A DNA stretch of 64,000 nucleotides, from the NCBI GenBank assembly GCA_039028635.1, contig JBCCHV010000004.1:1-64000 (forward strand), given 5' to 3'. The position numbers and the translations under genes were made by a program. How positions within the stretch are numbered: position 1 is the first letter of the stretch; the number at the start of each line of letters is the position of its first letter. The stretch comes from Acidobacteriota bacterium (GTDB lineage Bacteria > Acidobacteriota > Thermoanaerobaculia > Multivoradales > JBCCEF01). This document shows positions 15,020 through 19,809 of the stretch, in pieces. The notes under the pieces are model-generated. The model was given only the letters and a program-made list of their open reading frames with translations. It made no database searches and was not told the origin of the DNA.

Positions 15020-16834
<1,815 letters not shown>

Positions 16835-16876: not shown

Positions 16877-17500
16877 CTAGTCCTTGCTCTCCACCGGCAC
16901 GGCCACCTCGACGATGGCCGGGCGCAGAAGGCGATCGTGCAGCCGGTAGCCCTTCTGCATCTCCTGGACCACCACCGGGTCCAGCACCGCCGGGTCCTCG
17001 CGCTTCGATACCGCCTCGTGAATCGAGGGGTCGAAGGGCTCTCCCTCGGCGGCGACCTCTTCGACGCCCTGGCGCTTGAGGACGTCCAGAAGCTGACGCA
17101 AGATCAGCTCGACCCCTTGGCGCAGATCGTCCGCCGATCCGCCGGCAGTCAGCGCCCGCTCGAAGTTGTCGACCACCGCCAACATCTCGCGGGTCGACTC
17201 CACCAGGGCGTAGCGCTTCGATTCCCGCAGCTCGCGCTCGGAGCGCTTGCGGTAGTTCTCGAAGTCGGCGAGGGTGCGGACGGAGCGCTCCCGCACTTCC
17301 CGAACCTCCTGGCGCAGACGCAGCACCTCTTCCTCGAAGCCTTCGCCGGCACGCCGGCTCCCGCCCCGTTCCTCGACCTCTTCGACGGCCGCGACGGCAT
17401 CCCTCACGACCGCTTCCAGATCGTCGCCTCCGGTCTCTTCCAAGTTCAACTCCGCGGAGGACTCCTCCAGCCCATCCGACCGCATCTTCGACTTATTCAT
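16877..17500 (-). CDS. grpE: Nucleotide exchange factor GrpE
   Basis: A 207-residue cofactor that releases ADP from DnaK. It has an acidic N-terminus, a long coiled coil (EEEVLRLRQEVREVRERSVRTLADFENYRKRSERE) and a C-terminal beta domain with EPFDPSIHEAV and a final VAVPVESKD. LADFENYRKR is the conserved family segment. It lies 80 bases after hrcA and 42 bases before dnaK on the same strand. The ribosome site before the ATG is weak. Confidence 0.94.
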   Translation of the reverse strand: MNKSKMRSDGLEESSAELNLEETGGDDLEAVVRDAVAAVEEVEERGGSRRAGEGFEEEVLRLRQEVREVRERSVRTLADFENYRKRSERELRESKRYALVESTREMLAVVDNFERALTAGGSADDLRQGVELILRQLLDVLKRQGVEEVAAEGEPFDPSIHEAVSKREDPAVLDPVVVQEMQKGYRLHDRLLRPAIVEVAVPVESKD

Positions 17501-17580: not shown

Positions 17581-18657
17581 TCAACTCGAATCGCGAACCT
17601 TCGATTCCACTCCCTCGTCGAGGGCTCGGCTCAGGCTCTCGCCGACGTAGTCGACCAGCGGAATGATGCGCTGGTAGGCCATCCGCGACGGTCCGAAGAC
17701 GCCGAGCGTTCCGAGAGGGCGGTCGCCGACCCGGTAGGTCGTCGCCACCAGAGAGAAATCCAGCGGCGAGGTCAGGTCACTGTCGGCACCGATCAACACC
17801 CGCAAGCCGGTGCCGCTCATGCAGCGATTGAGCATATCGACCAGCCGCACGCGATCGGCGAAGGTCTCCATCAGGGTGCGCACCCGCTCGAGGTCCGCCA
17901 GCTCCGGCTGACCGAGCACCGTCGAAGCACCGTCGACCCGCACTTCCGGCACCGATCGCACCCGCAAACCTTCGCGGGCGAGCTCGATGGCGGTCGACAG
18001 CATACGGTCCATCTGGGCGCGCTCTTCATTCATCAAGGCGAGAATCCGGCTGCGGATCTCCTGCATCGACACGCCGGAGAAGTTGGCGTTCAGGTAGTTA
18101 GAGATCTCGACCAGTTTTTCACCGGCGATCGGCTCACTGGTCTCGATCACCTTGTTGTCGACGAATCCCGCCGCCGAAACCACCACGCAGAGCACCTTGC
18201 GGCCACTCATCGGCACGAAGTTGATCGCCTCGAGCACGGCCTCGCCGAGGGCCGGGCCGACCACGATGCCGACCTGCTGGGTGAGCTCCGAGAGCACGTG
18301 GGAAGTGGCCGCCATCAGCTCTTCCGGATCTTCCGACGAAGCCTTGAGGTGTTCGTGAACAAAGCGCCGGTGGCGCGCCGGCACTCCACGTCCGGACATC
18401 ATCGAGTCGATGAACAGGTGGTAGGCCTCGCCGGTGGGTACCCGGCCGGCCGAAGTGTGCGGCTGAATCAGGAATCCCCAGTCTTCGAGATCGGCCATCA
18501 CGTTGCGAATCGTCGCCGCCGACAGGCCGAGTCCGCCCTGCTTGGCGACGGCCCGCGAGCTCACCGGTTCCGCATCGAGAACGTAGGTGGCGATAATCGC
18601 CTTCAGAATCTCGCGATGGCGGGTGTCGAGATCGACCTTTGGGGATTCACGGCTCAC
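17581..18657 (-). CDS. hrcA: Heat-inducible transcription repressor HrcA
   Basis: A 358-residue repressor of class I heat-shock genes. The N-terminal winged helix is clear: LDTRHREILKAIIATYVLDAEPVSSRAVAK, then LSAATIRNVMADLEDWGFL and HTSAGRVPTGEAY. A GAF-like domain with an inserted dimerisation segment follows. The GTG start is chosen because the conserved region begins eight residues later and no ribosome site precedes it. Instead a TACAAT -10 box lies 6 bases upstream, so the mRNA may be leaderless. HrcA normally binds the CIRCE element, but I found no CIRCE in front of hrcA, grpE, dnaK or dnaJ. Confidence 0.94.
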   Translation of the reverse strand: MSRESPKVDLDTRHREILKAIIATYVLDAEPVSSRAVAKQGGLGLSAATIRNVMADLEDWGFLIQPHTSAGRVPTGEAYHLFIDSMMSGRGVPARHRRFVHEHLKASSEDPEELMAATSHVLSELTQQVGIVVGPALGEAVLEAINFVPMSGRKVLCVVVSAAGFVDNKVIETSEPIAGEKLVEISNYLNANFSGVSMQEIRSRILALMNEERAQMDRMLSTAIELAREGLRVRSVPEVRVDGASTVLGQPELADLERVRTLMETFADRVRLVDMLNRCMSGTGLRVLIGADSDLTSPLDFSLVATTYRVGDRPLGTLGVFGPSRMAYQRIIPLVDYVGESLSRALDEGVESKVRDSS

Positions 18658-18674
18658 CGAACTATTGTAACGCA
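18658..18674. promoter_or_regulatory. Symmetric bidirectional promoter between hrcA and the DUF2520 gene
   Basis: The two divergent GTG start codons are separated by only 17 bases. The centre TATTGTA reads as a -10 on both strands: TATTGT (18663-18668) rightwards and TACAAT (18669-18664) leftwards. Exactly 6 bases separate each -10 from its GTG, so both transcripts would start at or next to the start codon. TTGGGG at 18639-18644 is a possible rightward -35; the leftward -35 is weak (TTTGCT). Geometry is seen; promoter activity is inferred. Confidence 0.55.
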
Positions 18675-19511
18675 GTGAACGGCAAGCAAAGGCTTTGGAG
18701 CAACATCGCCCTGGTGGGCGCGGGCAAGGTCGGAACCAGCCTGGTGGCCTGGCTTCATGCCCACGGCGCACAGGTCGCACAGGTGGCGACGCGGCGCTCC
18801 GGCGATGGCGGCGAGCAGCTCGCCCGCCGCTACGGTGCGAGGGCCACCCCGCTGGAGGATTTCTCGAGTGCGGGTAGCGACCTCCTGCTGCTGGCGGTGG
18901 CCGACCCCGCCCTCGACCAAGTGGTCGCCGGATTGGCCCAGCGGCCACAGGCCGATGTCGCCCTGCACACCGCCGGCAGCCGTGGGGCCAGCGCCCTCGC
19001 TGCCCTGCGCCATGGGACTCCCGAGATCGCCCTCGGCAGCCTCCATCCACTGAAAGCCTTTCCGACGCCGCGGCCGGATGTCGCCGATGCCGCCGGCGTT
19101 TTTTTCGCCCTCGACGGCGACCCGCCGGCCGTCGCCCTCGGTCTCGAGTTGGCCCACCTCTGGGGCGGCAGAGCGGCGGTCATCTCAGAAGACAAACGGC
19201 TGGCCTACCACGCGGCGGCGACCCTCGCCGCCGGCGGCGTGGTCACCCTGCTGGCCGCCGCCGCCGACCTCGGTCGGCGCCTCGGCCTGCCGGCGGAGGT
19301 CGCCGAAGGCTACTTGGCCCTGGCACGGGGAGCCCTCGATCAGGCCGAAACGGCCGCACCCGACTTCGAGCGAGCCATCACCGGGCCGGTGGCGCGCGGT
19401 GACGAGGCGACCTTCCGCCAGCACCTCGAAGCCCTCGCCGGCAGCGCACCCGAGCTCAAGCCGCTGCTCGAGGAGCTCGCCGCGGCGACGCGGCGCTTAC
19501 GCGACGCCTAG
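18675..19511 (+). CDS. Rossmann-like and DUF2520 domain protein (putative NAD(P)-dependent oxidoreductase)
   Basis: A 278-residue protein. The N-terminal nucleotide-binding fold is shown by ALVGAGKVGTSLV (GxGxxG type), RRS and LLLLAVADPALDQV. The middle has GSLHPLKAF, and the C-terminal half is helical (DKRLAYHAAATLAAGGVVTLLAAA), as in the F420/NADP-dependent oxidoreductase-like DUF2520 family, related to ketopantoate and 6-phosphogluconate reductases. In some genomes these genes sit near pantothenate synthesis, but not here. The GTG at 18675 lies 6 bases after a -10-like box, so it may be leaderless. The stop codon is formed by the first bases of repeat A2. The substrate is unknown. Confidence 0.8.
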   Translation: MNGKQRLWSNIALVGAGKVGTSLVAWLHAHGAQVAQVATRRSGDGGEQLARRYGARATPLEDFSSAGSDLLLLAVADPALDQVVAGLAQRPQADVALHTAGSRGASALAALRHGTPEIALGSLHPLKAFPTPRPDVADAAGVFFALDGDPPAVALGLELAHLWGGRAAVISEDKRLAYHAAATLAAGGVVTLLAAAADLGRRLGLPAEVAEGYLALARGALDQAETAAPDFERAITGPVARGDEATFRQHLEALAGSAPELKPLLEELAAATRRLRDA

Positions 19512-19695
19512 CAGGTTGCTGAAAAACTCGTCGGCAACCTGCGACCGGGCCCGAGAGGGCCCGGCGGCGAAGCCGTGAGACGGGGTGAGCCCGAAAAATC
19601 GCACTTTTTCGGGCGAGGGGGCGCTCAGCCCCCTGAAATAAACAGCTAGCAGCGCTGGAAAAGTCGCGAATCGGACTTTTTCAGCAGCCTGCTAG
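19508..19695. repeat. Structured repeat, family A, copy 2
   Basis: This 188-bp element starts CTAGCAGGTTGCTGAAAAAC and ends CAGCAGCCTGCTAG. Hairpins in order are GCAGGTTGC / GCAACCTGC (19511-19542), GGGCCC-GAGA-GGGCCC, GCCCGAAAAA / TTTTTCGGGC (19589-19614), and AAAAGTC / GACTTTT (19659-19680). The third stem sits where A1 has GCCCGCACG / CGTGCGGGC, so the stem sequence has changed on both sides while pairing is kept. Its first bases include the TAG stop of the upstream gene. Confidence 0.75.
19659..19681 (+). terminator. Terminator-like hairpin in repeat A2
   Basis: Stem AAAAGTC / GACTTTT with an 8-base loop followed by a T run, about 150 bases after the DUF2520 stop codon. It occupies the same place in the element as the AAGCCGC hairpin in copies A1 and A3 but has a different stem sequence. 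Confidence 0.5.
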
Positions 19696-19809
19696 CCCGG
19701 TCCGCCAGTCAACCGGTGGCGGCTCCCGATACAGAAATCCGTATGTAACGACGGAACGCCGATTCTCGACAGAGAGCAAGAACGATCAACCTGTTCTCAC
19801 GGGGGAGCT

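What the first reader, a model, noticed from the sequence alone, without database searches (positions are those of the whole stretch)
18658..18674. Perfectly symmetric promoter driving two leaderless divergent genes
hrcA and the DUF2520 gene start with GTG codons only 17 bases apart. One TATTGTA core gives a -10 on each strand, and each -10 is exactly 6 bases from its GTG. With transcription starting ~6-7 bases after a -10, both mRNAs would begin at the start codon. Neither gene has a ribosome site. A heat-shock repressor would thus be tied to a metabolic gene through competition for one promoter.
Basis: partly seen in the sequence, partly recalled or inferred. Interest (0 to 1): 0.6.

Follow-up and report, generated by a model that had tools for sequence, protein, structure and literature searches.

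The report
Two-way promoter for two leaderless genes
A 17-base gap between two back-to-back genes looks like a single two-way promoter that would start each messenger RNA exactly at the gene's first codon; the site is kept in a sister species, and the same layout recurs at other gene pairs in this bacterial class, but no transcript has been measured.

Summary
hrcA (-) and a DUF2520 gene (+) start with GTG codons 17 nt apart; TATTGT (+) and TACAAT (-) overlap, each 6 nt from its GTG, with no ribosome site. Predicted start sites lie 18 bp apart, the commonest geometry of published bidirectional promoters. "Perfectly symmetric" is overstated: 6 of 11 half-site positions pair.

Leaderless starts are a genuine minority class in this genome: TANNNT exactly 6 nt upstream in 14 of 489 called genes, against about 1.6 at other offsets. 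The sister species keeps the site, with an invariant 18-nt block. DUF2520's promoter is older (14 of 24 order-wide loci); hrcA shares it only in this genus.

The layout recurs in the class: of 44 strict sites in 148 genomes, 21 have plausible genes at both codons, against 4 of 42 at control spacings (12 of 32 against 4 of 33 with homologues merged, p=0.023). Outside the class, 0 of 30 did.

The regulatory reading is unproven: no CIRCE here, and basal E. coli bidirectional promoters do not compete. No transcripts were measured. New variant of a known kind.

The parts
18658..18674 (.). 17-nt gap between the two GTG codons; the proposed bidirectional leaderless promoter
   Evidence: sequence; conserved in G001
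18663..18668 (+). -10 element TATTGT for the DUF2520 gene, 6 nt before GTG
   Evidence: 14 of 24 order-wide DUF2520 loci have TANNNT-6-RTG
18664..18669 (-). -10 element TACAAT for hrcA, 6 nt before GTG
   Evidence: same hexamer and spacing in G001 (L003/L119)
18639..18644 (+). putative -35 TTGGGG of the DUF2520 promoter, 18-nt spacer, lying inside hrcA codons 5-7
   Evidence: TTG at -36 flagged in 9 of 24 DUF2520 loci including both species of the genus
18662..18679 (.). 18-nt block CTATTGTAACGCAGTGAA identical in both species of the genus
18655..18657 (-). hrcA start codon GTG (ATG in the sister species)
18675..18677 (+). DUF2520 start codon GTG
17581..18657 (-). hrcA, 358 aa
   Evidence: PF01628 1.3e-55; TIGR00331 over cut-off
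18675..19511 (+). DUF2520 / Rossmann-like oxidoreductase gene, 278 aa
   Evidence: PF10728 1.1e-24, PF10727 3.2e-9
16877..17500 (-). grpE, downstream of hrcA on the same strand (probable operon)
   Evidence: PF01025 6.3e-46; operon inferred from spacing
15020..16834 (-). dnaK, downstream of grpE on the same strand (probable operon)
   Evidence: PF00012 7.4e-242; operon inferred from spacing

Best explanation
The 17-nt gap is a bidirectional sigma-70-type promoter of the 18-bp class. RNA polymerase binds one core, TATTGTA, in either orientation. On the plus strand TATTGT, helped by a TTG -35 inside hrcA, starts RNA at the G of the DUF2520 GTG. On the minus strand TACAAT starts RNA at the G of the hrcA GTG, leading into hrcA-grpE-dnaK. 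Both mRNAs are leaderless and translated from the 5'-terminal GUG. Shown: sequence, spacing, absence of Shine-Dalgarno sites, conservation, and genome-wide enrichment of the -10+6 geometry. Inferred: actual start sites, leaderless translation, and either-or polymerase binding. DUF2520's leaderless promoter is the older half; in this genus hrcA starts directly on its opposite face, which in many relatives also carries a -10-like hexamer but lies roughly 100-250 nt upstream of hrcA.
For: Geometry read directly and equal to the published optimum: 18 bp, -7T/-11A reciprocal. TANNNT exactly 6 nt before the start in 14 of 489 called genes (the window pair included) against a mean of 1.6 at offsets outside 6-9, while GGAG peaks 4-10 nt upstream. 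Same site in the sister species, invariant 18-nt block in a diverged background, hrcA GTG to ATG with unchanged length. DUF2520 start preceded by TANNNT at 6 nt in 14 of 24 loci and at 7-9 nt in 7 more. Class-wide recurrence: both-side genes at 21 of 44 sites, against 1 of 19 and 3 of 23 at two control spacings; Fisher p=1e-4 uncollapsed; 12 of 32 against 4 of 33 with homologues merged, p=0.023.
Against: No transcript data. The -10 hexamers match consensus at only 4/6 and 5/6; a consensus scan finds no complete promoter in 18500-18950. hrcA has no recognisable -35. The -18T of the published class is absent on both sides here, since both starts are G. TANNNT-6-RTG at hrcA is found in only 4 of 50 loci, two of them this genus, so the double arrangement at this locus rests on two species. 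The looser palindrome is not enriched over its reversed control across 59 genomes of the order.
Confidence: 0.66

Rival explanations
1. Only the DUF2520 side is a real leaderless promoter. hrcA is transcribed from a promoter inside the DUF2520 gene and translated from a leadered, Shine-Dalgarno-less mRNA; the TACAAT opposite is a by-product of -10 symmetry.
For: DUF2520's -10+6 is conserved order-wide while hrcA leaderlessness is rare (4 of 50); many relatives keep a TANNNT on the hrcA strand although hrcA lies 100-250 nt away (read); no -35 for hrcA.
Against: hrcA sits at exactly 6 nt in both species of the genus despite start-codon change and diverged flanks; no consensus promoter upstream on the minus strand in 18500-18950.
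Confidence: 0.2
2. The 18-nt block is conserved as an operator for an unknown regulator, and the -10-like hexamers are incidental or secondary.
For: The block extends beyond both -10s and is invariant in the genus; several relatives have a GCTAYNGTAGC-like short inverted repeat (read).
Against: The window core is not a good inverted repeat (6 of 11); conservation tracks the start codon at a fixed 6 nt, as expected for a promoter.
Confidence: 0.08
3. Chance: two short TA-rich hexamers fell at the right spacing.
For: Each hexamer carries little information; the loose palindrome is no commoner than its reversed control across the order.
Against: 2 against 0 sites in the genome, both at divergent open frames; conservation in the sister species; spacing-specific excess of both-side genes.
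Confidence: 0.06

Closest known systems
Bidirectional promoters with divergent start sites 18 bp apart (Warman et al. 2021, not held, known here from citations in PMC10268837; Warman et al. 2026, PMC12825309)
   Same: Overlapping -10s on opposite strands, -7T/-11A reciprocally base-paired, predicted 18-bp start-site spacing.
   Different: Here both predicted start sites are the first bases of start codons, so there is no leader on either side; -18T is missing because both starts are G in the window. The passages I saw do not mention leaderless genes.
Leaderless (TA-led) genes with TANNNT about 6 nt before the start (Zheng et al. 2011, PMC3160421; Deinococcus-Thermus study PMC12340547)
   Same: Same -10 and spacing; Acidobacteria are listed there with leaderless genes in 3 of 3 genomes, mean 13.3%.
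   Different: Here two leaderless genes share one core. 'Divergent' does not occur in PMC3160421, and neither 'divergent' nor 'bidirectional' in PMC12340547.
CIRCE-controlled hrcA-grpE-dnaK operons
   Same: Same gene order hrcA, grpE, dnaK.
   Different: No CIRCE in the window; among the 50 hrcA stretches scanned only 4, from one family (f6), carry CIRCE beside hrcA.

Membership tests
18-bp bidirectional promoter class | -7T and -11A of the two strands reciprocally paired | tested here: met
   A18664 and T18668 read; definition
18-bp bidirectional promoter class | divergent transcription start sites 18 bp apart | not testable with these tools
   predicted 18657 and 18675; no transcript data
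18-bp bidirectional promoter class | T at -18 of each start site (usual, not obligatory) | tested here: not met
   both starts are G, so -18 is C in the window; met on one side in G001, where hrcA starts with A
Leaderless (TA-led) gene | TANNNT about 6 nt upstream of the start codon | tested here: met
   genome-wide peak at 6 nt
Leaderless (TA-led) gene | no Shine-Dalgarno motif | tested here: met
   both genes
Leaderless (TA-led) gene | mRNA 5' end at the start codon | not testable with these tools
   needs 5'-end mapping
CIRCE/HrcA-controlled promoter | TTAGCACTC-N9-GAGTGCTAA near the promoter | tested here: not met
   0 matches in the window at up to 3 mismatches; consensus recalled
HrcA | TIGR00331 over curated cut-off | tested here: met
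   285.8 bits against 197.2
DUF2520 | PF10728 over gathering score | tested here: met
   87 bits against 25

The most novel reading that the evidence does not exclude
The class (relatives named Thermoanaerobaculia) repeatedly uses a compact architecture, the double-leaderless bidirectional promoter: two start codons 17 nt apart, one shared -10 core, no leader on either side. It sits at about a dozen unrelated gene pairs, some functionally linked: a MenG/UbiE-type methyltransferase with a chorismate-binding enzyme resembling isochorismate synthase (L173), and an ABC ATPase with a MacB/FtsX-type permease (L165). Transcription and translation of both partners would then be set by one polymerase choice.
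Probability: 0.5. Interest if true: 0.66.

Novelty: new variant of a known kind. Interest (0 to 1): 0.5.

Why it matters
If true, two gene starts are encoded in 23 bp: the shortest logical form of a divergent promoter, where promoter, start sites and start codons coincide. It joins two separately described phenomena (bidirectional promoters and leaderless genes), gives exact start-site predictions at many loci of a mostly uncultured class, and would let promoter competition be studied without leader effects. For this locus it implies hrcA is not CIRCE-autoregulated and shares basal control with a DUF2520 enzyme gene.

Tried and rejected
CIRCE at this promoter: rejected. The single genomic CIRCE (up to 3 mismatches) precedes groES-groEL.

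Alternative DUF2520 start TTG 18639: rejected as less likely. It coincides with the -35 position, and TTG recurs about 36 nt upstream of the start in relatives.

Order-wide enrichment of the loose palindrome CAYN5TANNNTAN5RTG: not found; 19 of 59 genomes have a match and the reversed control is more frequent. The reversed pattern has different dinucleotides, so spacing controls were used instead. Their effect is strong uncollapsed and modest once homologous sites are merged (p=0.023).

Second palindrome of the genome (MutS_V-domain gene / FkbM methyltransferase, C12): a divergent pair here, but in the sister species the site is kept while the FkbM-side frame is only 20 aa, so conservation of that pair is not shown.

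Extension beyond the class: of 247 genomes of the phylum 76 have a site (27 of the 247 belong to the class). Of the 30 loci read, all from outside the class, 0 had frames of 100 aa or more on both sides. Most of those genomes are less G+C-rich and no spacing control was run there.

Rows dropped: hrcA was found in 57 of 59 genomes and 50 stretches were examined; 7 (G003, G004, G019, G039, G050, G051, G055) were not fetched. DUF2520 counts cover the 24 stretches in which it was found; one of them (L036) gave no start codon in the script. Control spacing N4: 19 of 20 sites evaluated (one copy of a G044 repeat was not fetched). Gene calls are from my own simple coding-potential script, with unvalidated starts.

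Full report
What is there. The window lies in a 6.28-Mb draft genome. Named genomes with a DUF2520 relative are mostly MAGs labelled Thermoanaerobaculia, Acidobacteria or Acidobacteriota, with single other labels (Holophagales, Holophagae, Armatimonadetes), so the window belongs to the Acidobacteriota, most likely Thermoanaerobaculia. hrcA (17581-18657, minus) heads hrcA, grpE, dnaK; the DUF2520 gene (18675-19511, plus) is divergent. Both start with GTG, 17 nt apart. TATTGT on plus and TACAAT on minus overlap in TATTGTA, and each is followed by exactly 6 nt and the GTG. No Shine-Dalgarno-like motif precedes either.

Is it more than chance? The palindromic pattern that describes it (CAYN5TANNNTAN5RTG) has 2 places in the genome and none for the reversed control. 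Both places have open frames on both sides (278 and 358 aa; 239 and 558 aa). In an 864-kb sample with 489 genes called by my own script, TANNNT shows a peak at exactly 6 nt before the start: 14 genes (the window pair included), against 2-5 at 7-9 nt and a mean of 1.6 at the other 37 offsets from 0 to 40 (largest 6); GGAG peaks at 4-10 nt. Leaderless starts with a 6-nt spacer are therefore a real minority class here, in line with Zheng et al. 2011, who list leaderless genes in 3 of 3 Acidobacteria genomes, 13.3% on average (PMC3160421, passages). Of 39 divergent pairs under 300 nt the window pair is the closest; the next is 68 nt.

Conservation. One other species of the genus was found (G001). 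It has CACTGCGTTACAATAGCGACATG: the same two hexamers and both 6-nt spacers, hrcA's GTG now ATG. An 18-nt block, CTATTGTAACGCAGTGAA, is identical while the sequence on both sides has drifted. Further out, DUF2520 and hrcA are divergent in 24 of the 50 hrcA stretches read (from 57 genomes with hrcA among 59; 7 not fetched). Outside the genus the two aligned starts lie about 120-290 nt apart, counted to DUF2520 residue 9-13 (L036, cut, aside). The DUF2520 start keeps TANNNT at 6 nt in 14 of 24 and at 7-9 nt in 7 more; TTG stands at exactly -36 in 9 of 24, and a base or more off in several others. hrcA has TANNNT at 6 nt in only 4 of 50 (two of them this genus) and at 9 nt in 9 more, all from family f4. 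Many relatives also carry a TANNNT on the hrcA strand opposite the DUF2520 -10 (read by eye). My reading is that DUF2520's leaderless promoter is old and that in this genus hrcA abuts its other face. Family f6 instead has CIRCE between the genes (4 of 50 stretches); whether this genus lost CIRCE or f6 gained it is open.

How it most likely works. RNA polymerase binds the core in one of two orientations; each RNA begins at a GTG. The geometry equals that described for bidirectional promoters: the most common divergent start-site distance is 18 bp (PMC12825309, Introduction passage), with -7T and -11A reciprocally paired (PMC10268837, passages). The window lacks the usual -18T because both starts are G. 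The plus-strand side has a plausible -35 (TTGGGG, 18-nt spacer) inside hrcA; the minus-strand side has the better -10 and no clear -35. A consensus scan found no full promoter in 18500-18950, so basal activity may be low. In E. coli, basal transcription at all five tested bidirectional promoters was too low for polymerase competition, which arose when one direction was strongly activated (PMC12825309, abstract and Discussion).

Recurrence in the class. With the stricter core TAYNRTA, 44 sites occur in 38 of 148 genomes of the class. At 21 of 44, frames of at least 100 aa with coding-like G+C bias start at both codons; at control spacings this holds for 1 of 19 (N4) and 3 of 23 (N8), Fisher p=1e-4. 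Merging homologous sites gives 12 of 32 against 4 of 33, p=0.023. Recurrent pairs include an RsmI-like gene (TIGR00096 at 167.0 bits, just under its 167.9 cut-off) with an unnamed 214-215-aa gene in 7 genomes of one family, a MenG/UbiE-type methyltransferase with a chorismate-binding enzyme whose best model is isochorismate synthase (below its cut-off), and an ABC ATPase with a MacB/FtsX-type permease. Outside the class, of 30 loci read, none had frames of 100 aa on both sides. The effect is moderate statistically and no spacing beyond N4 and N8 was tested.

Literature. A search for papers with both 'leaderless' and 'bidirectional promoters' gave 4 papers, seen only as a listing; judged by title none concerns bacterial double-leaderless pairs, though one is on Pyrococcus (archaeal antisense transcription) and one on Vibrio, and neither was read. 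Two wider searches listed nothing on such pairs by title. The 2025 Deinococcus-Thermus paper has no occurrence of 'bidirectional' or 'divergent' (PMC12340547, term search only). Warman et al. 2021 itself was not held. Most subscription papers are not in the library, so this is weak evidence of novelty.

Verdict. Observation confirmed; interpretation supported for promoter geometry and leaderlessness as inference from sequence, unsupported for regulatory coupling. New variant of a known kind: a bidirectional promoter with no leader on either side, recurrent in one class of Acidobacteriota.

Noticed in passing
window 19508-19700: A repeat of about 190 bp bounded by AGCAGGTTGCTGAAAAA / TTTTTCAGCAGCCTGCT-like inverted ends just after the DUF2520 gene; one search lists 50 matching stretches in the genome (many near full length, some fragments), several at contig ends: a MITE- or REP-like family.
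   Followed up: partly
L146 8414-8440 (G000:C97): The only CIRCE in the genome at up to 3 mismatches lies before groES-groEL, so HrcA here may control groESL alone.
   Followed up: partly
L147, L148, L150, L154-L157: RsmI-like gene and an unnamed 214-215-aa gene share a near-palindromic double-leaderless core in 7 genomes of family f13; symmetry reaches 10 of 11 half-site positions.
   Followed up: partly
L173 1490-1512: A MenG/UbiE-type methyltransferase and an isochorismate-synthase-like gene diverge from one double-leaderless core: a functionally linked pair.
   Followed up: partly
L163, L164, L166: Cobalamin adenosyltransferase gene opposite a conserved 39-aa frame at a double-leaderless core in three genomes; the small frame may be a real short protein.
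   Followed up: no
L041-L043, L045-L048, L050, L051: hrcA of family f4 has TAGAAT or TAACAT 9 nt before its start, which would give a leader of about 3 nt.
   Followed up: no
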